From positions 1 to 21,466 of the IMG/VR virus record IMGVR_UViG_3300027759_000493: a stretch of DNA of 21,466 bases. One strand, given 5' to 3'. The first letter of the stretch is position 1. Each line of letters begins with the position of its first letter. Positions 1,007 to 18,974 of the stretch are shown piece after piece. A program made the translations under genes and the position numbers. The notes under the pieces were generated by a model. That model ran no database searches. It was given only the letters and a program-made list of their open reading frames with translations, and had not been told where the DNA came from. The stretch is from a virus.

Positions 1007-2764
1007 TTAGACTGCATATCGAATGATAACAATTCCTGATCCACCTGCACCGCCGTTACCGCCAGCAGGACCACCGCCACCGCCACCGGAACCAGTATTT
1101 GCAACCGCATCAGTGCCATTAAGATTAACGCCATTTTTTCCACCAGTACCACCACCGCCAACACCACCGATTGCTTGCGCTGCATCGTACGCACCGCCCG
1201 CACCGCCACCAGCGTAATAACCATTCACGCCTGTACCTGTAGCAAGTGAAAATGTAGTTAATAACAATCCTGCTCCACCAGCACCAGCACCAGATGTTGA
1301 TCCATTAACTCCAACTGCGCCTGCACCACCACCGCCACCGGCTGAAGCAAATGTTCCGCTTGAACCTGAACCACCACCACCATTATATCCTTGAACTGGG
1401 GATGCAGTTCGAGAACCACCGCCACCTGAAGGTGTGCGACCAGCGCCACCACCAGAACCACCTGAACCACCGCTTACATCATAATAACCACCATAACCGC
1501 CACCAGTGCTAGTTATGGTTGTGATGCCAGCGCCTGCAATTGAAGAGTTTATTCCAGGATTTCCATTTGAAGAATCATTTGGTTGAGCTGCGCCACCTGC
1601 ACCAACTGTAATTGTGTATGTAGTTCCTGAATTAAGTGAAATTGCAGATTCAAGTGTTCCATTTCCACCTGTTGCAGTTACAGTTGATCGCAAACCACCG
1701 GCACCGCCACCGCCTGCCATATCTCCACCACCGCCACCGCCACCTGCAATGAGAAGATAATCACAAGTAATTGATTGTGTTGGAATGAAATCTCCAGATG
1801 CAAGAAATGTGTGATACCAATAAGTTCCATCAGTTGTGAGTGTTCCACCAGTTGCCTTGGCTGCTGCTACTGCCCCTGTGTAAAAAATTCTTGAAGATGT
1901 GAAAGTGTGATAAGTATATCCACCTGATTCTACAATAGTGCCACCTTGTGCTTTTTGTGAGCCTAAGTATCGAGCTATAACAATACCTGATCCACCACTG
2001 CCACCACCACCATCTGCATTACCGCCACCGCCGCCTGAACCAGTATTTGTTACACCGGCAACACCAGCACTTGGACCACCACCAGCAACACTGCCGCCAT
2101 TTCCACCACCACCTGAACCACCAGTTCCTGGTTGAGAACTACCATTTCTATCAGTACCACCGCCACCACCACCAGCATAAAAACTAGAAACACCGGTTGA
2201 AGTTGCACTTGCAAAAGTTGAATATGCGTTTGTTCCAGCACCGCCATTGCCTGATTTCAAAGATGATGCGTTTGTTCCAGCAGAACCGGCACCGCCACCG
2301 CCACCAGATGGGCGGTTTGTATTGCCTACATCAAGATTGTAACCAAAACCACCTGCATTACCTTGCCCCGATGTAGGTGAGCCACCTGTGTTGGTTTTAG
2401 AGTTAGAACCACCACCACCACCACCTGAACCGCCATTCGCGCCATTGGCATCACCAAAACCAGTACCATAACCACCACCAACGGCTGCAGTTAATGAAAT
2501 TCCAGTTCCTGTAATACTTGAATTGCTGCCTTGTTGAGCTGAAGTTGATGAGCCACCATCTCGACCAGGCCCACCAGCACCAATAGTTACAGTAAAGGCA
2601 GTCGCTGCTGGCATTACAACTGATGCAGTGTAAACAAGACCACCAGCACCACCGCCACCGCCAACTGAAGCACCACCAGCGCCACCGCCGGCAATTACAA
2701 GTGTATCAACAAGAATATTTAAGTTGCCCGATATTCCTGATGCAATAACTCCAAGAATAGGCAT
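1007..2764 (-). CDS. Glycine-rich tail fibre / adhesin, two tandem modules
   Basis: This 585-residue protein begins MPILGVIASGISG, a start I associate with phage and environmental tail-fibre proteins. Two homologous modules follow, roughly residues 18-266 and 333-585. Each opens with a (D/C)xLxIAGGGxGG strand, passes through tracts of up to five consecutive glycines, a TVTIGAGG or TITVGAGG strand, and ends GSGGSGIVIxRY. Between them is a 65-residue linker that itself repeats a GGT...YxYHTF...F unit twice. Long glycine runs separated by short beta segments recall the polyglycine-II bundles of the T-even gp38-type adhesins, which bind receptors; that parallel is structural inference. It starts 1 nt after the preceding fibre gene, with GGGGGATG about 10 nt upstream of the ATG. 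It is likely the receptor-binding end of the fibre cassette. Confidence 0.85.
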   Translation of the reverse strand: MPILGVIASGISGNLNILVDTLVIAGGGAGGASVGGGGGAGGLVYTASVVMPAATAFTVTIGAGGPGRDGGSSTSAQQGSNSSITGTGISLTAAVGGGYGTGFGDANGANGGSGGGGGGSNSKTNTGGSPTSGQGNAGGFGYNLDVGNTNRPSGGGGGAGSAGTNASSLKSGNGGAGTNAYSTFASATSTGVSSFYAGGGGGGTDRNGSSQPGTGGSGGGGNGGSVAGGGPSAGVAGVTNTGSGGGGGNADGGGGSGGSGIVIARYLGSQKAQGGTIVESGGYTYHTFTSSRIFYTGAVAAAKATGGTLTTDGTYWYHTFLASGDFIPTQSITCDYLLIAGGGGGGGDMAGGGGAGGLRSTVTATGGNGTLESAISLNSGTTYTITVGAGGAAQPNDSSNGNPGINSSIAGAGITTITSTGGGYGGYYDVSGGSGGSGGGAGRTPSGGGGSRTASPVQGYNGGGGSGSSGTFASAGGGGGAGAVGVNGSTSGAGAGGAGLLLTTFSLATGTGVNGYYAGGGAGGAYDAAQAIGGVGGGGTGGKNGVNLNGTDAVANTGSGGGGGGPAGGNGGAGGSGIVIIRYAV

Positions 2765-2765
2765 A

Positions 2766-3329
2766 TTAGGCTACATCCCCCGTTGCATACCAGGTATCTG
2801 TTCCGGCTTTAATCAAAGTCATTACCGAGTAACGCGCTCTAGTTTTTGGTGTAGCAGCAGTAGCACCTGTTGATAATACAGTTACACCGCCTGCGCCCTG
2901 AACTGTTACTTGGCCAACACCAATTTGGATAAGGTTTACAAGTGAACCTGTTGGAAATGCCACGCTTGAATTAAGTGGAATTGTATAAGTTTGAGCTGAA
3001 GCATTAGATGCAGTAACTAAATCATCTCGATCTGTTAAAACAAAAGTATATGTTGTGCCTGTTTGGGCATTTACGGCTTCAACGCCACCTGCACCTGAAG
3101 GACCAGTTGGGCCTGAAGGACCAGTTGCACCAATAGGACCTGTAGGACCAGTTGCACCAGGTGAACCTGCAGTGTAGGCATAAGCCAAAGAGTTCCAGGC
3201 AGTAGCACCATCGCCAATTTTATACTTACTGGTGTTTGTTTCAAGCCCAATTTCACCAGCCGCAAGTGTTGGGTTGTTGCTTGTCCAGTTTGCTGCAGTA
3301 TCGCGGCGGTTTTGTAGTCTTGAAGTCAT
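2766..3329 (-). CDS. Short tail fibre protein with Mtd-N-like head and collagen-like stretch
   Basis: This 187-residue protein has three parts. Residues 1-52 (RRDTAANWTSNNPTLAAGE, then a KIGDGATAWNSL motif) match the N-terminal attachment domain seen in many phage fibres and in the Bordetella phage Mtd N-terminus, where it contacts the virion or trimerises. Residues 55-80 are Gly-x-y triplets ([18 protein letters not shown]). The rest is beta-rich (TYTIPLNSSVAFPTG, a VNLIQIGVGQVTVQ strand, a final TWYATGD) and fits a common fibre C-terminal domain used for trimerisation or binding. AAGG about 5 nt before the ATG supports the start. It lies between the large collagen-like fibre and the glycine-rich fibre, so the three probably act together or as alternatives at the tail tip. 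Confidence 0.85.
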   Translation of the reverse strand: MTSRLQNRRDTAANWTSNNPTLAAGEIGLETNTSKYKIGDGATAWNSLAYAYTAGSPGATGPTGPIGATGPSGPTGPSGAGGVEAVNAQTGTTYTFVLTDRDDLVTASNASAQTYTIPLNSSVAFPTGSLVNLIQIGVGQVTVQGAGGVTVLSTGATAATPKTRARYSVMTLIKAGTDTWYATGDVA

Positions 3330-3348: not shown

Positions 3349-5274
3349 CTAGAAAGAAACTGATGCTCCACCGGCATCAATAGTATAAGTCCAACTTGAA
3401 GTTGATGAAGTTCCTGAATCGTAAATTACATCGGGGTTAATCGTTGCAGGGCCACCATCAAGATAATCAACAATGTACGCTGCTGCATCTTGGCCGGCAG
3501 GGCCTGTTGCACCTGTTGGACCAGTTGAACCTACAGGGCCAGTTGATCCTGTTGCTCCAACGGGTCCAGTTGAACCAGTTGCACCGATAGGACCAGTAAC
3601 ACCTGCAGGGCCTGAAGCACCGGTTGGGCCAACAATATTTTCACCGGCAGGCCATACACCTGCAGCTTTTGGACCAAATATTTTATCTGAAGTGGTGTTG
3701 ATGTAAAAATCACCATCAACACCTTCAGTTGTTGGATCAACTGTTCCATTAAGAATAGTTTTTCCAGCAATACCGCTAGGGCCAGTGGCACCTGTAGCAC
3801 CAATTGGACCAGTTGCACCGGCAGGGCCAGTAGCACCGATAGGACCAGTTGTACCTATTGCACCGGTTGCACCAACTGCACCAGTTGCACCAACAGGGCC
3901 AGTAACACCAACATCACCCTGGATGCCTTGGATTCCTTGCGGGCCAGTGGCACCGATAGGGCCAGTTGCACCTGATGCACCAACGGGGCCAGTTGCACCC
4001 GCAACGCCTGCAGGACCTGTAGCACCGCTTGCGCCAACAGATCCGGTTGCACCAACTGCACCGGTAGCACCGGCAGGACCTGTTGCACCAACAGGACCAG
4101 TAGCACCAACAGGACCAGTAGCACCTGCAGGACCCGGAACAATTGAATTAGCGCCTGAAGCACCGGTTGCACCAATTGGACCAGTTGGACCAGTAACACC
4201 TGTAGGACCTACAGGGCCAGTAGCACCTGTAGCGCCACTTGGGCCAACTGCTCCACTTGAAACAATTGCAAGGAATACTTCGTGATTGTTTGCAAAACCT
4301 GTTGTTCCTGTTCCACTTGATGTTAAAAGTGTTACTGGAAGTTGATCATATCCAGTTTGCTCAATTAATGAACTTGCAATTGTCCATTTTTGATAATTAG
4401 CAGAAACATTTGCATCTTGAATAATAATAACATCATCAGGTTGAAGCAAATGAAGAAAAATATTAATATCATTGCCATTAAAATCAAGATGGCTAACATT
4501 AAGTTGGGTAGCACTTGTTTGCGTAGCATTGTTGTAAATAATAAAGCCATTGCCAGGGTTGCCAGTTGTGGCAGATGTTTTGATTTTGTAATTGTAAAAG
4601 CTAGTTGATTGGCCTTGTGGACCTGTAGCACCTGTAGCACCGATAGGACCAGTTGAACCTGTAGCACCAATTGGACCTGTAGGGCCAGTAACACCGATTG
4701 GGCCAGTTACACCTGTTGGGCCAGGAACAAATGAATCTGCACCTGTTGGGCCAGTGGCTCCAACGGGGCCTGTTGCACCAACAACGCCTTGAATTCCTTG
4801 TGGACCTGTAGCACCAACTGGGCCTGTTGCTCCAACTGGGCCTGTAATGCCGATAGGACCAGTAACGCCGATAGGACCAGTTACCCCTACTGCGCCGGTT
4901 GCACCAACAGGGCCAGTGGCACCGATTGGACCAGTTACGCCAACTTCACCCTGGATGCCCTGAATTCCTTGAATTCCTTGCGGTCCAGTTGATCCTGTAG
5001 GACCAGTTAGGCCGATTGGACCAGTAACACCGATAGGGCCAGTTACGCCTGTTGCTCCAATTGGGCCTGTTGCACCTACGGGGCCAGTAACGCCAATAGG
5101 GCCAGTTACGCCTGTTTGTCCAATTGGACCTGTAGCACCAACCGGACCTGTAGGGCCAGTAGCGCCAATAGCACCTTGAGGGCCTTGAAGATTGGAAATA
5201 ATTACCTCGGCAGTTGAGGCAATTTCTGCAATTACATCAGTTGTGCTTGAGGATACATAGACTATTGAACTCAT
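3349..5274 (-). CDS. Large collagen-like tail fibre protein
   Basis: This 641-residue protein has a short non-collagen N-terminus (about 30 residues, start [15 protein letters not shown]), then three Gly-x-y blocks: roughly residues 31-220, 340-500 and 545-595. They are separated by a globular insert of about 120 residues (221-338, with the strands [19 protein letters not shown] and LPVTLLTSS) and a smaller one ([20 protein letters not shown]). The C-terminus (about 596-641) is a small beta domain. Triplets are dominated by [12 protein letters not shown] and GVT, so Thr is very frequent; a [13 protein letters not shown] element recurs. Collagen-like blocks in phage fibres form triple-helical stalks. 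Its start overlaps the upstream stop (ATGA) and AGAGG lies 7-8 nt before. Assembly as a homotrimeric fibre is inferred from the family. Confidence 0.92.
4613..5187 (-). repeat. Collagen triplet block 1 (Gly-x-y coding repeat)
   Basis: This is the longest of the collagen-like blocks, an array of 9-nt units that code for Gly-x-y with strong preference for Thr at the third position. The units are near-identical at DNA level (complements of GGACCAGT and GGGCCAGT recur throughout), so slippage or recombination between copies could change stalk length. Boundaries are approximate, set where the triplet pattern stops. Confidence 0.75.
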
Positions 5275-6608: not shown

Positions 6609-6746
6609 TTAGTTAGTGGTTGATTCTTTATTTTCTAGCTCTTGAAGGCGTGCGGTAAGCATTGCCTTATCAAGTGCTAGTAGGCCAATTTGTTCACGCA
6701 AGGATGCGATTACAAGATTGATATTGAGTTCTGTGTTTTCGTTCAT
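6609..6746 (-). CDS. Coiled-coil miniprotein, 45 aa
   Basis: This gene lies in the gap between the spike and the first membrane protein. It codes for 45 residues, starting MNENTELNINLVIASLREQ and continuing as one amphipathic helix (IGLLALDKAMLTARLQELE) with leucines at heptad spacing, so a short coiled coil is likely. The start is firm: GGGGGGA lies about 5 nt before the ATG, and the ATG overlaps the spike stop as ATGA. Small helical proteins at this place, after the fibre or spike and before the holins, are frequent in phages, but I know no assigned function. It could be a lysis regulator or a spike assembly factor. Confidence 0.75.
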   Translation of the reverse strand: MNENTELNINLVIASLREQIGLLALDKAMLTARLQELENKESTTN

Positions 6747-8299
6747 TGTGTCCCCCCTTCAAGCGTTGTTACGCGTGCGTGTAAATCTTGAACAAGTGCA
6801 AGTATTCCTGGAACAACAAAACGATCATTCCAAGATTCAATTACGCCATCATTCTTATCTGCTGCAATTTCATAGGCTTGAGCAACCTCTTCAGCAATAA
6901 AGCCTGGCAATGGGGTGCCAGCACGATCATCTGCTGAATCTAGGTAATCTGCCTTGTAAGTAAATGCTCGAACAGGCAATGATAGCAATTTGTTTGGGTT
7001 AAGTTCAGGCACTGTACGAATATCAACAATATTTTCCTTATAGCGTTGGCTTGAGGCGGTGCTTCGGCGAGTAAGGCCGTTTGTTCCACTCATCCAGGTA
7101 TTTGCAGTATTTGTAGTAGTTGTTGAATCCTGATTGTAAAAAGCATCGAGAGAATAAAAAGCACCCTTTGCCTGAACACCAGTAGAGTTGCAAATTAAAT
7201 AAGTTGTTGAGTTATAGGCAATTTGAGCTGAACCTGATGTTACAAAAGCATTTGGGTAAGTTGTTGCCGCAGCATTAAAAGTAGCGCCGTAGTGCATAAC
7301 AATACCTGAAGTTGAGGTTGGACCAATCCAACCAACAGTGCTACTTGATTCAGTAAATGAAATAGCATTGCTTGAAGCTGAAATTGTAACTCTGCGAGCG
7401 CCTGAAGATGTACGCAATGTGAAGGCAGTAAGTGTGCCTGCCGTCAAGCGGTCAACTGTAATTGAATCTGCTGCAATTTCAGCAGCAGTAATAGTTTCTG
7501 AAGCAATTTCAGCAGCAGTAATTGTTGCACCGGCTATTTGATCTGCAGTAATTGTGGCTGCTGCAATATTGCCGGCGGTAATAGTTTCTGAAGCAATTTT
7601 AGCTCCTGTAATAGTTGCTGCTGCAATATTTACTGCCTCAATAGTTCCTGCTGCAATCTTTGTTCCTGCGATACTTGCAGCCTCAATACGATCAGCAGCA
7701 AGATAACCAGTTGTAATTTTTGCTGCATCTAAGGTAGCAATTACGGCATTTGTAAGCGCGTTTTTGTTCCATTGTGTTCCGTCAAATGTCCACTGATCAA
7801 GCACATTTGAGGCTGCACTTGTGCTTGCCATTTTCCACCAAAGATCACCGGCGGTATAACCAGTTGTGCCTGAAGCATCAGATGTTGAGCGTACAATCTT
7901 ATTCTTACCATTAGCAGTAGTTTGTGCTGCAGTTGCTGCAGTTGTTGCCTCTGCTGCTGCAGTTGTTGCTGCTGCTGCTGCAGTTGTTGCTGCTGCAATC
8001 GCGGTATCTTGAACAGACACCCAAGCGGTTCCAGTCCAATAATACTGCTTATTGCCATCATCAGTATCAAACCAAACATCACCTTCAACTAAAGCATAAA
8101 CAGAGCCATCAGGCGCACTTGCTTGGCGGTAGATGTGGTTTTTGCCATTAACGGCAGCCTCAATTGTATTGATTTCTGTTTGAAGTTCGCTTGCCTGCTC
8201 TGTAGTTACAGGATCATTTGCAGCAATAACTGAGGTAGTAGTCATTCCTGAAGTGGTTACAGTAATTGGTGTAATTGTTACTTGTGGGCAAAGTGGCAT
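6743..8299 (-). CDS. Tail spike/fibre with decapeptide repeats and C-terminal S74 chaperone
   Basis: This 518-residue protein has a short N-terminal part, then two related units (about residues 51-96 and 130-180), each opening NGKN and closing with an aromatic strand (WTGTAWVSV, FDGTQWNKN). An Ala/Thr-rich linker joins them (about 99-129). Residues 191-290 are ten exact 10-residue repeats of the form xxxxIxxxxI. The C-terminal 103 residues are an intramolecular chaperone auto-processing domain (peptidase S74). It begins SSQRYKENI, where S416 and K421 match the Ser-Lys dyad used for self-cleavage, and ends GFIAEEVA, WNDRFVVPGILALV and a heptad helix. The domain drives trimerisation and is then released. 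GGGGGAAT precedes the ATG. The previous gene's stop (TAG) runs into this ribosome site. Confidence 0.9.
   Translation of the reverse strand: MPLCPQVTITPITVTTSGMTTTSVIAANDPVTTEQASELQTEINTIEAAVNGKNHIYRQASAPDGSVYALVEGDVWFDTDDGNKQYYWTGTAWVSVQDTAIAAATTAAAAATTAAAEATTAATAAQTTANGKNKIVRSTSDASGTTGYTAGDLWWKMASTSAASNVLDQWTFDGTQWNKNALTNAVIATLDAAKITTGYLAADRIEAASIAGTKIAAGTIEAVNIAAATITGAKIASETITAGNIAAATITADQIAGATITAAEIASETITAAEIAADSITVDRLTAGTLTAFTLRTSSGARRVTISASSNAISFTESSSTVGWIGPTSTSGIVMHYGATFNAAATTYPNAFVTSGSAQIAYNSTTYLICNSTGVQAKGAFYSLDAFYNQDSTTTTNTANTWMSGTNGLTRRSTASSQRYKENIVDIRTVPELNPNKLLSLPVRAFTYKADYLDSADDRAGTPLPGFIAEEVAQAYEIAADKNDGVIESWNDRFVVPGILALVQDLHARVTTLEGGTQ
7430..7729 (-). repeat. Ten 30-nt coding repeats (decapeptide repeats of the spike)
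   Basis: Ten consecutive 10-residue units run without a gap, for example EAVNIAAATI, TGAKIASETI, TAGNIAAATI, TADQIAGATI and TAAEIASETI. Ile or Leu sits at positions 5 and 10 of each unit, so each holds two pentads with a hydrophobic fifth residue. The pattern resembles pentapeptide-repeat proteins, which fold as a four-sided beta-helix, so a slender rod segment is likely. The fold is inferred; the period is read directly. Confidence 0.8.
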
Positions 8300-13930: not shown

Positions 13931-14042
13931 GCTTTATTCTCGTTTCTACTTTGGGAATCATTGCGCGTTCCAGTTCAGGAACGGCGGTAGTAGTTTCCTT
14001 TGATTTTACCTTAATTCTTAAAATTCTTTTTATGCGTTCCAT
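13917..14042 (-). CDS. Basic miniprotein, 41 aa
   Basis: The gap between the glycosyltransferase and the connector is covered by this frame of 41 codons, which overlaps both neighbours (13 nt and 14 nt). It reads MERIKRILRIKVKSKETTTA, VPELERAMIPKVETRIKRG and NH. It is strongly basic at both ends and probably helical. No Shine-Dalgarno of note is seen (AGGCAG lies too far upstream), so translation would depend on coupling to the glycosyltransferase. Basic miniproteins may bind nucleic acid, but there is no evidence beyond charge. The only reasons to trust it are the lack of other use for the gap and the overlaps, a layout common in this operon. Confidence 0.5.
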   Translation of the reverse strand: MERIKRILRIKVKSKETTTAVPELERAMIPKVETRIKRGNH

Positions 14043-14707
14043 ATATCGTGCTGCCTATCATCTAGCCAATAATTCTTGGAATGAGGCAATATTGCGCCGG
14101 TATGAGCATAGATAGGAAAGCCTAGTGATTTAACTCGCCGGCAAAATTGAAGATCCTCGCCAATCCAGTTGCCGTGGATAGGTCCATCCCAAAACCAACA
14201 CCAATCTTGCCCCTGGTGTTCATCAGCTTCATCACGCATTTTTTCTAACACGCTGCGGTGAATCAAAAGGCAACCAGTTCCTGCTGCATCTACTTCAAAC
14301 AATGAATCTTTATCATAATTATTGAGTGGCAAGAATCCTTCAGGTGCATCTTGAAAGATTGTTGGAACTGGTTTTGGATATGGGAATCCTGTTTCAAAAC
14401 TTGCAAATACTAATCCCGCCACAACCGGGCGTTCCTTTTCGTGAGCCGCTTCAACCAATTTATCAAAACTTGAAACTGGCAATTGCTCATCTGAATCCAT
14501 CATTAAAAGCCAATCAGATTTGGTTTCCAAGAATTGCTTAACCAACCGATTGCGTTGCTTTGATAAAAGCCCTGAACCCTTGATTCGCACAAAGGGTCCT
14601 AATCGAGATGCCCTAGATTGCGTAAGTTGAATCAAGCTAAATGCAAACCCGCCATCAACTGTACCTGGATCACAACTACCAACTGAAACTTTATGTGCGC
14701 TTTTCAT
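14030..14707 (-). CDS. GT-A glycosyltransferase encoded next to the capsid gene
   Basis: This 225-residue protein fits a metal-dependent GT-A (family-2-like) glycosyltransferase that moves sugar from a nucleotide donor. The DxD motif is D71-S72-D73 in WLLMMDSDEQ. GEDLQFCRRVKSLGF (E183, D184) is the usual acidic catalytic or acceptor-side motif, and H202 and H209 (AHTGAILPHS) can complete metal binding. QRNRLVKQFL before the DxD is also typical. The length is full for a small single-domain enzyme, with no membrane helix, so it acts in the cytoplasm. It starts after a stem-loop that follows the capsid gene; GGGGGA lies just 2 nt from ATG. Its place inside the head genes suggests that a virion protein is the acceptor, which is inference. 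Confidence 0.8.
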   Translation of the reverse strand: MKSAHKVSVGSCDPGTVDGGFAFSLIQLTQSRASRLGPFVRIKGSGLLSKQRNRLVKQFLETKSDWLLMMDSDEQLPVSSFDKLVEAAHEKERPVVAGLVFASFETGFPYPKPVPTIFQDAPEGFLPLNNYDKDSLFEVDAAGTGCLLIHRSVLEKMRDEADEHQGQDWCWFWDGPIHGNWIGEDLQFCRRVKSLGFPIYAHTGAILPHSKNYWLDDRQHDIWNA

Positions 14708-14788: not shown

Positions 14789-16141
14789 TTAGAAAGTTGG
14801 TGCTACCAAACCGGTGCCTGAAATGATTGAGGCAGCGAGTGGGTAACGCTCTGCTGAGAAGGCACCAAAGCCGTAAACAACAGATTTAACAGTGAGTGAA
14901 CCAGCGCCTGTTGCATCAAATGAGAGTGCAAAAGGTGATCCTGGTTGTTCCCAAAGGTGCATTTCTGGTGCTGCAACGCAGTAGATTTCATCCTGGTTTG
15001 TTGCTGCGCCAAGGTTTGTAAGCACATTTGCATCAGTTACAACTGGAAGGCCAAGGATTGTGTAACCTGAGTTTCCGTATCCTGGAAGTCCAGCGCCTGC
15101 TGCTGCTGCGTTCATTGGTCCGTTTGAATTCGGAACTGCCAATGGGCGGCCTGTTGTGTCGCTTGAAGCAAGAATTGCTGCAAGGCGGCGTGGATGCATA
15201 ATCCAGTGTGTTGGAGCGATGAAAACATTGCTCTCAACTTTCTGGTAAGCATCTGCCAACTTTGAGTAAAGAAGTGCAGTTGTAGGTGTTGTTGCAGTGT
15301 AAGTAACTGTGTTTCCACCTGATGCGCGGATTCCCTTGAACTGGCCGTTGTTGCCTGTTCCGTTTAGAACCTGGTAATCCACTGTTGTGTGCCAAGAGCG
15401 AATAAGGTCTGCTACAACGAATGTATCAATACCTGTTCCGCGCTCAATAGCCTGCTTTGATAGATCCTGCTGGCCGGCAATTGTGCGTACCGGAATTGTG
15501 AGCAGAGTATCATCTGAATCAGTGTTAGAAACATCAGTGTTTTGTGTTTCCTGAACTGCAGTAGATGTTCCAGTAGTCATACGGGAAATGTTTAGAGTCA
15601 TTCCCGCTGCTGGAAGTGCGTGCTTTGATGTTGCGTAATCTGCAGTTGGGCGGCCTGCGCGTGCATAAGGTGCAGCGAGATCAACCAAATACTGAGGGAT
15701 TACAAGGCCAGCAAAGTTATCAGTTGCAACCGAACGGCGCTCAACTGATTCTTCCTTTGTGTGGCGTGCTAGGCGCTCTTGCGCTGAGTAATCGCCACGA
15801 ATCTGCGCTGCGTAAACATCCTTAACGAATGAAACTTCAGCTTCAGGTGTGTATGTGCGTGCTTCGCGTGTAACTGTTGCTCCACCAACGCGAGGTGCTA
15901 CAACTGCTGCGACTGAAGCGCGAACTTCAGCAGCCTTTGCATCTGCAGTAGCCTGTGTTGAGAACTTTTCAATCTTTGCATCAAGTGCGCGTGCCTCTTC
16001 AACAAGAGCATCAACCTTTTCGGTTTCCTCTGCAGTAAGATCGGTGCGCTCTTCGGCAGCAACTGCCTCTAGAACTGCATCCATTTCAACCTTAACTGCA
16101 TCACGGCGCTCAAGAGCAATATCAAGATATGACTTAGACAT
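14789..16141 (-). CDS. Major capsid protein, HK97 fold with N-terminal delta domain
   Basis: This 450-residue protein starts at ATG 16141, where GGAG lies 5 nt upstream; the frame runs open for 29 further codons with no site. Residues 1-70 (LDIALERRDAVK, LTAEETEKVDALVEEARALD) form the acidic coiled-coil delta domain that acts as internal scaffold and is cut off by the protease, probably near residues 90-105 (GATVTREARTYTPEAEV). The rest carries HK97-fold landmarks: FVKDVYAAQIRG, LVIPQYLVDL, IPVRTIAGQQDLSKQAIERG, WIMHPRRLAAIL and a C-terminal AFSAERYPLA. It forms the icosahedral shell. It sits between two stem-loops, which sets it apart from the otherwise packed operon and suits a product needed in hundreds of copies. 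Confidence 0.93.
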   Translation of the reverse strand: MSKSYLDIALERRDAVKVEMDAVLEAVAAEERTDLTAEETEKVDALVEEARALDAKIEKFSTQATADAKAAEVRASVAAVVAPRVGGATVTREARTYTPEAEVSFVKDVYAAQIRGDYSAQERLARHTKEESVERRSVATDNFAGLVIPQYLVDLAAPYARAGRPTADYATSKHALPAAGMTLNISRMTTGTSTAVQETQNTDVSNTDSDDTLLTIPVRTIAGQQDLSKQAIERGTGIDTFVVADLIRSWHTTVDYQVLNGTGNNGQFKGIRASGGNTVTYTATTPTTALLYSKLADAYQKVESNVFIAPTHWIMHPRRLAAILASSDTTGRPLAVPNSNGPMNAAAAGAGLPGYGNSGYTILGLPVVTDANVLTNLGAATNQDEIYCVAAPEMHLWEQPGSPFALSFDATGAGSLTVKSVVYGFGAFSAERYPLAASIISGTGLVAPTF

Positions 16142-16254: not shown

Positions 16255-17022
16255 TTATTTTGTGTTATTGATAATTGCTTTTGCTAGGCGTAGGGAAATT
16301 GAACGCCCTGCAGTTGCAGGCATACCTGTTGGCTCTAACTCAACTTCAGGATCCTCAACCTCAATAGTTGGGGTTAGAGTATCTAGCCCAAGCAAAACCT
16401 CAAGCATACTTTTGCCTTCCTCAAGGCTATCGTAAGATTCAGAAACTTTTTCAAGAATTGAATTAATAACAAGTGTTGATTCGCCATCTAGGGCGCGGCC
16501 CTCTTTGATTGCATCCATTGCGTTTTGTAGTGCCTCTCTTGCTTCAACAGTTGTTGTTGGATATGCAGGATAGGTAACAACTGAAACATCCCCATCTGCT
16601 AGTGAAACTTCAGTAAGTGTGCGAACTGAACGATCCTCATTCCACTTTTGGCGAATGACTCGGAACGCGAAACTCATCTGATCTACATCACCGCGCTCAA
16701 CTAACTTATACAAATCACGGCCTTCAGTTGTATCTGCAATCTCTGCATCCATAAATAGGCCACGCTCATCTTCACTGAGTGTAAGAGTTCCATTCTTAGT
16801 GCGAGCCAATGGCAAGCCTTCGTGGTTAATGAGCAGGCGTACATCAGGTGTTTCGCTCAAAGTCTTGCGAAATGCGCCGGGCGCAATTGTTTCTTTAAAA
16901 GGTAGGGGAACGCTTGCATCATTGAATACTGCAGCATAACCGCGTAAGCGCATAGTTCCATCTTCAGCTTGGCGTGCCTCAACATCTTGAACTGTAAATG
17001 TACGGCGTTCGATTTCTTTCAT
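16255..17022 (-). CDS. Possible separate prohead protease from an internal start (255 aa)
   Basis: Inside the fusion gene, codon 186 is an ATG at 17022 preceded by AAGGAG with a 4-nt spacer. This is the most canonical ribosome site in the window, and it falls exactly at the junction between the HAD domain and the protease. Translation from it would give a 255-residue protease starting MKEIERRTFTVQDVE, the usual start and size of HK97-type proteases. Both forms would share the C-terminus, the Ser S302 and the His H252 (full-length numbering). This is an inference from the site; the longer product is equally open. Nested starts in phage head protease genes are known, for example lambda C and Nu3, though there the short form is the scaffold. 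Confidence 0.6.
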   Translation of the reverse strand: MKEIERRTFTVQDVEARQAEDGTMRLRGYAAVFNDASVPLPFKETIAPGAFRKTLSETPDVRLLINHEGLPLARTKNGTLTLSEDERGLFMDAEIADTTEGRDLYKLVERGDVDQMSFAFRVIRQKWNEDRSVRTLTEVSLADGDVSVVTYPAYPTTTVEAREALQNAMDAIKEGRALDGESTLVINSILEKVSESYDSLEEGKSMLEVLLGLDTLTPTIEVEDPEVELEPTGMPATAGRSISLRLAKAIINNTK

Positions 17023-17577
17023 CTTGCTCCTTGAGTTTGCACCAGTAATACTGGATGGATTCATTGTTTCAATTCCAAGAGATTGATAAGCCTCTCTTGC
17101 GCTATCCCCATTATCAATTGCAAGTTTTACTGTTTTTGTTTCCATAATTTTTTCAGCCGTTGCTTTTTTATATTCAGGGCTAGCCATATCTGTATTATTT
17201 AAAGTTAAAGCATTATATTCAACACCTGCTGCACGCAAATCTGTTGCAGTTTTATTGCGCTCATCTGCCATTCGGCCAGTTACAATGTGAATATAATATT
17301 CTTTTCCTAATTCATTAACATAATCAATATTTTTTTGTATGCCTTCACTGCCATTAAGAACAGTTCCATCAACATCAACAATAACAACTGTATTTGATGA
17401 ACTGTTGCGTTCTCCCATTGGGTCAATACCCTCGGCTAATGAAACTGCAACCATCTGATCAACTGCATCTTGTTTTGATGTATGGCATCCAATTGTGGTA
17501 AATGAGCCATCAGATTCCTCTTTTACTGTTGCCCATCCTGCACAATCTGATTCTTTATTACTGATGTAATAAGGCAT
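16255..17577 (-). CDS. HAD phosphatase domain fused to HK97-type prohead maturation protease
   Basis: This 440-residue protein has three parts. Residues 1-50 (CAGWATVKEESDG, IGCHTSKQDAVDQM) match a small domain often found before phage head proteases. Residues 62-175 are a HAD-type hydrolase: motif I VIVDVDGTVLNG (D68, D70), motif II HIVTGR (T100), a Lys near 139-143, and motif IV LAIDNGD (D155). It resembles the phosphatase part of polynucleotide kinase. Residues 186-345 are an HK97 prohead protease: RRTFTVQDVEAR, LRGYAAVFN, ETIAPGAF, catalytic His H252 in INHEG, and Ser S302 in VDQMSFAFRV. The C-terminal 90 residues are acidic and helical. The start overlaps the portal stop (TAATG). The protease cuts the capsid delta domain. 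The HAD substrate is unknown. Confidence 0.88.
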   Translation of the reverse strand: MPYYISNKESDCAGWATVKEESDGSFTTIGCHTSKQDAVDQMVAVSLAEGIDPMGERNSSSNTVVIVDVDGTVLNGSEGIQKNIDYVNELGKEYYIHIVTGRMADERNKTATDLRAAGVEYNALTLNNTDMASPEYKKATAEKIMETKTVKLAIDNGDSAREAYQSLGIETMNPSSITGANSRSKMKEIERRTFTVQDVEARQAEDGTMRLRGYAAVFNDASVPLPFKETIAPGAFRKTLSETPDVRLLINHEGLPLARTKNGTLTLSEDERGLFMDAEIADTTEGRDLYKLVERGDVDQMSFAFRVIRQKWNEDRSVRTLTEVSLADGDVSVVTYPAYPTTTVEAREALQNAMDAIKEGRALDGESTLVINSILEKVSESYDSLEEGKSMLEVLLGLDTLTPTIEVEDPEVELEPTGMPATAGRSISLRLAKAIINNTK

Positions 17578-18974
17578 TACTTAACCTCATAGGCTGCTGC
17601 AGGATCTGCAGGATCAATTGTTGCAATTTGCTGCAATTGACTTGAAGGCAATCCAGTGTGCTTCATATCAGGCAAGCCAACTGCCTTAGTTACTGCTGCA
17701 GGATCAAAGCCAACCTGAATCAAACTTGCTGCAATCTCGGTGCGTAGCTTTAGTCCAACATCCTTGGCATCTGTTGCATCAATATTTTGTAGTGGAACGC
17801 GATACTCATCGCCACTTTCAATTGGTGCCATATCTTCATAAGAGTGAACATCATTGATTGAAAGGAAACCTTCACGCAAGCCCTTTGTATAGGCATCATA
17901 ACGCTCAATTGTTGTGCCACGCAGTAGGGCATCTAGGTTGAAGCGGATGAATCCATCAGGTTCAGGTAGCAATGTTGATAGTGATTGCTCAATTCGCTCC
18001 AAGATAGGGCGCAATGAGTGCTGCACAAATGAAAGGTTTTGTGCTTCAACTGATGCAAAAGACATTGCACCGGCTACAGGGTGGCCTAGCAATGAGAGTG
18101 GAACGCGGAAAATACGAGCAATTTCTTCAACTGAGAAACGGCGTGTATCCAAAAGTTGAGCATCATTCGCATTAATTGTTAGTGGGGAGAATGAAGCGCC
18201 ACCTGAAAGGATGCCAATTTTACCTGCGCGGTATGGGCCAGTGTGGCTAATGTTCCAATCACGGCCAATATCTGCTGCCTGCTCTTCAGTAAGTTCACCT
18301 GGAACTGTGATAACGCCACCTGGATTAGCAGCATTACCAAAGTATGAAGCGGCATAAGTATCTGCAGCCATCGCTGAACCAATTGTTGTACGGCAAGCCG
18401 CAATTGGGCTTAGGCCATAACGCTGCCCTGGCAAACGGAAATCAGGAATGTGCATAATCTCGCGGCCATCAAGAATTTGCTCATAGGTTCCCCCGCCTTC
18501 GAGGCGAACCTTTACATAGTAAACCAAAGGTTCACCTGGGGCAGTACGCTCAATGCGAACATAACGCGGATCAATAACATATAACTCTTTTACATCGCCC
18601 ATATCATCGCGCACTGTGAGGATGTAAGCGTTGCCTTCAAGTTTGAATGAAGTAACAATCTGCTCATAAAACTCAAGGCGTGTTGTTTCAGGATTAGGGC
18701 GTGAAACCCAATCAGGTTGGCTGCCATAAACAGTTGCATAAGGCAAGCGGTTACGGCCACGGCGTACATACGCTGCAACCGGTAATGAGCTAACTGTATC
18801 TGCAAGCAAGCGAACGCAGGCATAAACAGTGGACATACGAATGGCAGTTTCAGAATCAACTACAACGCCTGCCATTGTTTCAAACGCAGGGCGGCCTGGA
18901 ATCAATGGTTCGATGTATTGATTGTTAGCACGCTTTTCGCCTGATGCGTTGTTAAGGCGCTTAGATAAACTCAT
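17577..18974 (-). CDS. Portal protein (HK97 type)
   Basis: This 465-residue protein has the marks of HK97-family portals: AIRMSTVYACVRLLADTVSS near residue 45-65, WVSRPNPETTRLEFYEQIV, a GNAYILTVRDDMG strand, IMHIPDFRLPGQRYGLSPIA, then SYFGNAANPGGVITVPGELT, FSVEEIARIFRVPLSLLG and an LRPILERIEQSL helix. The dodecameric ring sits at one vertex and is the channel for DNA entry and exit and the dock for the terminase. The C-terminal QLQQIATIDPADPAAAYEV tail is flexible. Its start overlaps the preceding miniprotein stop (TAATG) and its stop overlaps the protease fusion start in the same way, so the three genes are translated as one unit. Confidence 0.93.
   Translation of the reverse strand: MSLSKRLNNASGEKRANNQYIEPLIPGRPAFETMAGVVVDSETAIRMSTVYACVRLLADTVSSLPVAAYVRRGRNRLPYATVYGSQPDWVSRPNPETTRLEFYEQIVTSFKLEGNAYILTVRDDMGDVKELYVIDPRYVRIERTAPGEPLVYYVKVRLEGGGTYEQILDGREIMHIPDFRLPGQRYGLSPIAACRTTIGSAMAADTYAASYFGNAANPGGVITVPGELTEEQAADIGRDWNISHTGPYRAGKIGILSGGASFSPLTINANDAQLLDTRRFSVEEIARIFRVPLSLLGHPVAGAMSFASVEAQNLSFVQHSLRPILERIEQSLSTLLPEPDGFIRFNLDALLRGTTIERYDAYTKGLREGFLSINDVHSYEDMAPIESGDEYRVPLQNIDATDAKDVGLKLRTEIAASLIQVGFDPAAVTKAVGLPDMKHTGLPSSQLQQIATIDPADPAAAYEVK

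What the first reader, a model, noticed from the sequence alone, without database searches (positions are those of the whole stretch)
16255..17577. HAD phosphatase domain joined in frame to the prohead protease
The head maturation protease gene carries an N-terminal HAD hydrolase with intact motifs (DVDGT, VTGR and AIDNGD) between a short leader domain and the protease. HAD enzymes are not part of known HK97 maturation. A phosphatase carried into the prohead could act on DNA ends during packaging (it looks like polynucleotide kinase 3'-phosphatase), or on nucleotides, or be a passenger delivered with the virion. This is the strongest candidate for an undescribed system here.
Basis: partly seen in the sequence, partly recalled or inferred. 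Interest (0 to 1): 0.72.

Follow-up and report, generated by a model that had tools for sequence, protein, structure and literature searches.

The report
Phosphatase module on phage capsid protease
A phage gene for the protease that matures the virus shell carries an extra phosphatase domain in a slot where close relatives swap different domains in and out, and a conserved ribosome-binding site inside the gene suggests that the protease is made both with and without this attachment.

Summary
The 440-aa ORF is a 56-aa leader, a capless HAD domain (aa 60-178) and an S78 prohead protease. AlphaFold2 plus structural alignment puts the HAD closest to the T4 Pnkp 3'-phosphatase (Z 17.7, 2.0 A over 117 residues). 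It is no assembly artefact: dozens of independent viral contigs have the same in-frame fusion.

(1) The HAD is one interchangeable module. The stretch between leader and protease holds HAD, A, Z, B and Tudor modules in at least 14 arrangements. Phages with 98-100% identical proteases differ in modules, so HAD is accessory to maturation. (2) A Shine-Dalgarno and start (AAGGAG-N4-ATG/GTG) lies inside the fused gene at the protease boundary. It is kept in 57 of 63 relatives although neighbouring amino acids change. Its AGG codon is the only invariant one among 80 conserved columns, while AGG is 2% of Arg codons elsewhere.

Best explanation: a dual-start, polyvalent-type protease. The short form does the maturation; a fraction with modules carries an enzyme into the prohead. 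Substrate and delivery are unshown. Motif IV is Asp-Asn, not Asp-Asp, and T4 residues Arg176 and Asp254 are missing, so 3'-DNA phosphatase is unproven. New variant of a known kind.

The parts
16255..17577 (-). fused ORF, 440 aa: leader - HAD - S78 prohead protease
17410..17577 (-). leader module N (aa 1-56), beta-beta-beta-alpha, shared by nearly all relatives; weak DUF2188 likeness in 2 of 46 members
17044..17400 (-). capless HAD phosphatase module (aa 60-178): D68/D70/T72, T100-G101-R102, K137, D155-N156; closest solved fold T4 Pnkp 3'-phosphatase
17027..17032 (-). internal Shine-Dalgarno AAGGAG, 4 nt before the internal start; conserved in 57 of 63 relatives of the ERRT clade
17020..17022 (-). 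internal in-frame start ATG (Met186), predicted start of the short protease-only product (255 aa)
16531..16986 (-). Peptidase_S78 / HK97 prohead protease domain (aa 198-349)
17577..18974 (-). portal protein, directly upstream (overlaps the start of the fused ORF by one base)
14789..16141 (-). HK97-type major capsid protein, directly downstream; ATG 16141 with GGAG upstream

Best explanation
The gene is a dual-start, modular ('polyvalent') prohead protease. Initiation at the first ATG gives a long form (leader-HAD-protease). Initiation at the internal AAGGAG-ATG gives the protease alone, enough for capsid maturation. Because the essential enzyme is independently translated, the upstream half is free to gain, lose and reorder modules. 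The long form is carried into the prohead by the protease, and its N-terminal module, here a Pnkp-type capless HAD phosphatase, is loaded as cargo that either works inside the head or is ejected with the DNA to act on phosphorylated nucleic-acid ends or nucleotides early in infection. Shown by sequence: the fusion, the fold (predicted) and core residues, the module swapping, and the conserved internal start signal. Inferred: two products, prohead loading, delivery and substrate.
For: Fusion in many independent contigs. Module order varies: N-HAD-PRO, N-A-HAD-PRO, N-HAD-A-PRO, N-HAD-B-Z-A-PRO, N-Z-A-B-HAD-PRO, N-T-HAD-A-PRO, N-PRO and others. Window and L002 have identical protease domains (portal 98%, TerL 99%), but L002 also has module A; L029 (PRO 99%, portal 96%, TerL 97%) has A and no HAD. 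At least 8 HAD gains/losses on the protease tree, 5 forced by starred branches. Internal SD: AAGGAG-N4-ATG/GTG in 57/63 relatives against 7 other AAGGAG in 79.5 kb of the same ORFs; AGG 60/60 where Arg is kept, yet 2.2% of Arg codons elsewhere; the two SD codons have the lowest entropy of 80 conserved degenerate columns. It is a better SD match than any of the 23 gene starts scored in the window. L074 has a free-standing protease gene starting at the homologous Met with its own AGGAG; L112 and L149 have modules and protease as separate adjacent ORFs. HAD under purifying selection, dN/dS 0.03-0.28. Fold: T4 Pnkp phosphatase Z 17.7. Published precedent: an assemblin-like peptidase always at the C terminus of polyvalent proteins (PMC5512222); P1 DarA, an internal head protein, is cleaved by the prohead protease (PMC12810830).
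Against: No expression, proteomic or biochemical data. The more distant ETRR clade keeps the Met but has no SD, so internal initiation may be clade-specific. After self-cleavage, fragments of a prohead protease may simply leave the head. Motif IV is D-N, and T4 substrate residues R176 and D254 are absent, so activity or substrate may differ or be weak. No RNA/DNA ligase or kinase partner was recognised in the 21-kb window.
Confidence: 0.5

Rival explanations
1. Assembly-only role: the modules are structural adaptors or scaffold-like tethers for the protease and the HAD acts inside the prohead on phosphorylated ends or proteins; nothing is delivered to the host.
For: The leader is nearly universal in the family; prohead proteases act in the prohead; HAD sits in a head gene between portal and capsid genes.
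Against: N-PRO, N-A-PRO and PRO-alone relatives with 90-99% identical proteases do without the HAD, so assembly does not need it.
Confidence: 0.25
2. Delivered counter-defence effector (the specific form of the cargo reading): the HAD is a Pnkp-like end-healing phosphatase injected early to undo 3'-phosphate or cyclic-phosphate breaks made by host nucleases or anticodon nucleases.
For: Nearest fold is T4 Pnkp phosphatase, part of T4's tRNA repair in prr hosts (annotation of T4 pseT and rnlA); rapid module turnover is typical of conflict genes; the HAD is AT-rich (GC3 0.16 vs 0.32 in the protease), as of separate origin.
Against: Asp278, Arg176 and Asp254 of T4 Pnkp not conserved; no ligase or kinase recognised in the window; delivery not shown.
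Confidence: 0.3
3. Non-catalytic binding domain: a HAD fold with a weakened motif IV used only to bind a phosphate-bearing ligand.
For: Motif IV is D-N in the fused modules, whereas free-standing L157 and MAG locus L164 have D-D; L156 has E-N.
Against: D68, D70, T100 and K137 are invariant across 46 sequences down to about 41% identity, which points to catalysis.
Confidence: 0.15
4. The SD-like AAGGAG is only part of a conserved linker/recombination joint, not a ribosome-binding site.
For: It lies exactly at the joint between modules and protease.
Against: Amino acids change (SRSK, PRSK, ARSR, SRRE, SRRK) while AAGGAG and its 4-nt spacing stay; the following codon is ATG or GTG only; a free-standing protease gene begins at this Met. 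In the ETRR clade the Met is kept in 51 of 52 though neighbours vary.
Confidence: 0.15

Closest known systems
Polyvalent proteins of phages and conjugative elements (Iyer et al. 2017, PMC5512222)
   Same: Several domains in one polypeptide, enzymatic passenger domain(s), encoded among late packaging genes, assemblin-like peptidase at the C terminus.
   Different: No phosphatase is mentioned in that paper's text; here the carrier is the essential prohead protease itself, with a conserved internal start; virion delivery not shown.
HK97-family prohead protease (Peptidase_S78, TIGR01543, phrog_80)
   Same: Protease domain, gene order portal-protease-capsid; phrog_80 already contains the leader and the Cys-rich module Z.
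   Different: Known HK97-type proteases lack the HAD; internal start signal within a module fusion.
T4 Pnkp 3'-phosphatase (PDB 5UJ0, 1LTQ; phrog_415, phrog_505)
   Same: Fold (Z 17.7, rmsd 2.0 A, 117 residues, 25% identity); DxDGT, (S/T)GR, Lys and AID of motif IV.
   Different: No kinase domain; Asp278 to Asn156; Arg176 and Asp254 not conserved; fused to a protease.
Uncultured Caudovirales 'Prohead protease' / 'HAD-like domain containing protein' records (A0A6J5MQJ8, A0A6J5PW45 in BFVD)
   Same: Same fold and up to 79% identity over the aligned part; deposited before.
   Different: Only automatic names; no description of the module system found in the library searched.
Prohead protease of Pontimonas phage phiPsal1 (MG835450, AUV61415)
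   Same: Same family with leader, Z and A modules before the protease; host isolated.
   Different: No HAD and no AAGGAG seen at the joint inspected.

Membership tests
HK97-family prohead protease (S78) | S78 domain above the curated threshold | tested here: met
   155 bits vs cut-off 21; TIGR01543 116.5 vs 59
HK97-family prohead protease (S78) | gene between portal and major capsid genes | tested here: met
HAD superfamily | Rossmann-like core with DxD(G)T, S/T, K and an acidic motif IV on the expected strands | tested here: met
   model; motif residues; motif IV is D-N
T4 Pnkp 3'-phosphatase family | same fold, better match than other HAD groups | tested here: met
   Z 17.7 to 5uj0 vs 15.2 for Nir2 and 13 or less below; Pfam HAD_PNKP itself is weak (E 0.038 for the window's domain)
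T4 Pnkp 3'-phosphatase family | T4 residues R176, D254, D278 (essential by published mutagenesis; from my own knowledge, not read here) | tested here: not met
   aligned positions are not conserved
T4 Pnkp 3'-phosphatase family | 3'-phosphatase activity | not testable with these tools
   needs an assay
Polyvalent proteins | 2-15 domains in one chain with shuffled order | tested here: met
Polyvalent proteins | assemblin-like peptidase at the C terminus where present | tested here: met
   (S78 after the modules); definition in PMC5512222; that S78 counts as assemblin-like is from my own knowledge
Polyvalent proteins | packaged in the capsid and transferred to the host | not testable with these tools
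   needs virion proteomics
Dual-start (nested) gene | conserved SD and start inside the ORF, kept at the nucleotide level | tested here: met
Dual-start (nested) gene | two protein products | not testable with these tools
   needs western blot or ribosome profiling

The most novel reading that the evidence does not exclude
A capsid-protease gene built as an open loading port: a conserved internal ribosome-binding site uncouples the essential protease from an upstream slot into which phages plug interchangeable enzymes, so that a set fraction of protease molecules carries cargo (here a Pnkp-like phosphatase) into the head for delivery to the host.
Probability: 0.35. Interest if true: 0.8.

Novelty: new variant of a known kind. 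Interest (0 to 1): 0.6.

Why it matters
If the two-product reading is right, it shows how a phage can attach fast-changing cargo to an essential assembly enzyme without endangering assembly, and gives a natural, swappable tag for loading proteins into HK97-type capsids. It also makes a testable set of near-isogenic phages (same protease, different modules) for asking what virion-borne domains do, and adds a phosphatase to the predicted repertoire of polyvalent proteins.

Tried and rejected
Assembly error or frameshift as the source of the fusion: rejected, same fusion in many independent contigs. Tight requirement of the HAD in maturation: rejected, absent in close relatives. Single-sequence AF2 of the whole 440 aa: useless (pLDDT 35); replaced by aa 1-182 with an alignment. 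Sequence search of the HAD in annotated phages: no match at E 0.01. HAD profile in bacterial genomes: no match; a profile of the whole protein found a pond MAG (L164, N-HAD-A-PRO) and a Microbacteriaceae MAG (L165). HAD profile against PDB sequences: only weak general HAD hits. Papers on T4 Pnkp mutagenesis were not held. No paper describing HAD-prohead protease fusions turned up, but most subscription papers are not in the library. SD in the ETRR clade: looked for by eye, not found. RNA folding around the starts showed no strong structure over the internal SD (-8.4 kcal/mol in 70 nt); not decisive.

Full report
OBSERVATION. The ORF at 17577-16255 (-) is 440 codons with no interruption. It begins on the last base of the portal gene and is followed by the major capsid gene. 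Pfam finds Peptidase_S78 at aa 198-349 (E 2.6e-45) and Acid_phosphat_B (HAD IIIB) at aa 82-159 (E 1.1e-8, above its cut-off). PHROGs gives phrog_80 'head maturation protease' (E 2.6e-64) and phrog_415 'polynucleotide kinase' (E 7e-12). NCBIfam gives TIGR01543, HK97 prohead protease. The window is the whole of a virus record of 21,466 bases, likely a fragment of a genome.

THE HAD DOMAIN. AF2 with 46 aligned sequences gave a confident model of aa 1-182 (pLDDT 89.1, pTM 0.75). VIA-align 2 ranks T4 Pnkp 3'-phosphatase first (5uj0_B, Z 17.7, rmsd 2.0 A, 117 residues aligned, model 60-176, 25% identity), above Nir2 (15.2), plant VSP (13.0) and lipin (12.9). There is no cap domain. Profile comparison with T4 PseT and a joint alignment map D165, D167, T169, S211-G212-R213, K258 and D277 of T4 onto D68, D70, T72, T100-G101-R102, K137 and D155 (the place of K258 is shifted by a residue or two between the two alignments). 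D278 is Asn156 here; T4 R176 and D254 have no conserved counterpart. Free-standing L157 (large phage contigs) and the pond MAG locus L164 have canonical D-D. That R176, D254 and D278 matter in T4 is from my own knowledge; the paper is not held. The domain evolves under purifying selection (dN/dS 0.03-0.28 against seven relatives). I therefore call it a Pnkp-like HAD phosphatase of unknown substrate.

A MODULAR SLOT. The whole protein found 262 relatives in viral contigs (80 kept). Of those 80, 3 carry HAD. A search with the HAD alone gave 27 loci, every one inside a leader-module-protease ORF or a contig-end fragment of one, and a profile search 80 loci, of which only L156-L162 lie outside such genes. 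HMMs for leader (N), HAD, A, Z (Cys-rich), B, Tudor (T, PF11160) and protease (PRO) show 14 arrangements that begin with N and include PRO, with HAD before or after A, B or Z. The exchange is recent: the window and L002 share identical protease domains, 98% portal and 99% TerL, but L002 has module A between leader and HAD; L029 (PRO 99%, portal 96%, TerL 97%) has A and no HAD. On the protease tree the HAD label needs at least 8 changes, 5 forced by well-supported branches, and the architecture (Tudor ignored) 40. The set is enriched for HAD in one clade because some loci were fetched with the HAD. In the window the HAD is AT-rich (GC3 0.16; protease 0.32, portal 0.35, TerL 0.39), which fits a separate origin.

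AN INTERNAL START. At the joint before the protease the window reads AACTCAAGGAGCAAGATG: AAGGAG, four bases, then in-frame ATG (Met186, 17022-17020). This is a better SD match than at any of the 23 gene starts scored in the window; among 217 internal in-frame ATG/GTG/TTG it is one of three with a six-base match, and the only ATG. In 63 relatives of the ERRT clade, AAGGAG stands at that exact place in 57 and AGGAG in 61; the start is ATG (48) or GTG (15). Elsewhere in the same ORFs AAGGAG occurs 7 times in 79.5 kb, and AGG makes up 39 of 1,807 Arg codons. Amino acids before the start vary (NSRSK, KTRSK, TPRSK, KARSK, NARSR, ESRRE, ESRRK), but the nucleotides and spacing stay. Among 80 conserved, at least four-fold degenerate columns, the two SD codons have the lowest codon entropy (AGG 60/60; AGC/AGT 59/59). 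Loci are related, so counts are not independent, but synonymous distances between the window and most of the HAD-bearing relatives are near or above 1. In L074 a free-standing protease gene starts at the homologous Met with its own AGGAG. In L112 and L149 the module string is its own ORF ending just before the protease start. In the ETRR clade the Met is kept in 51 of 52, but no SD precedes it. So Met186 is very likely the old start of the protease gene, still usable in the window's clade.

HOW IT MOST LIKELY WORKS. Long form from the first ATG; short form (255 aa, protease only) from Met186. The short form suffices for capsid maturation, which explains why the upstream half can change so fast. 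The long form takes its modules into the prohead with the protease. The modules then either act there or stay and are ejected with DNA. Polyvalent proteins carry an assemblin-like peptidase always at the C terminus, proposed to act in virion assembly as elsewhere (PMC5512222), and P1's internal protein DarA is cleaved by the prohead protease (PMC12810830). Shown: fusion, predicted fold, residue conservation, module exchange, conserved start signal. Inferred: two products, loading, delivery, substrate.

COMPARISON AND NOVELTY. The protease is a member of S78; the HAD is a member of the HAD superfamily and Pnkp-like by fold, but fails the T4 residue test. The whole fits polyvalent proteins by architecture; delivery is untested. 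Deposited sequences with the same fusion exist under automatic names (BFVD A0A6J5MQJ8, A0A6J5PW45), and I found no paper on them. Hence 'new variant of a known kind'.

Noticed in passing
window 3349-5274 (-) and 2766-3329 (-): Collagen-like [10 protein letters not shown] repeats in tail-region proteins; 1007-2764 (-) is a 585-aa glycine-rich protein.
   Followed up: no
window 6743-8299 (-): C terminus (SQRYKENIVDIRTVPELNPNKLLSLPVRAFTYK) looks like an S74 self-cleaving chaperone of tail spikes; read by eye, not searched.
   Followed up: no
window 14030-14707 (-): Probable family-2 glycosyltransferase between the capsid gene and the connector genes; phiPsal1 also has glycosyltransferases next to its capsid gene. 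Not searched.
   Followed up: no
L019, L044, L087 and others; L121, L165: A Tudor-like module (PF11160 Hva1_TUDOR) inserted near the C terminus of the protease in many relatives and N-terminal in L121 and L165.
   Followed up: partly
L163 3677-4720 (Actinomycetia phage DSL-LC01): Module B (KVTDHN..AYSTSHRPG..DNDLLP) occurs in a separate late gene near the portal gene of a 129-kb lake phage, so modules also live outside proteases.
   Followed up: partly
L156 2-931: An A-like module, a HAD with E-N motif IV and a C-terminal 'GESEQEFVSRC..CYTKW' piece in one chain: the same module pair in another protein context.
   Followed up: no
L111, L112, L114, L115, L129, L149: Split arrangement: leader-HAD(-A)-Cys-rich protein ends just before a separate protease ORF; L149 has TAAGGATG at the joint.
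   Followed up: partly
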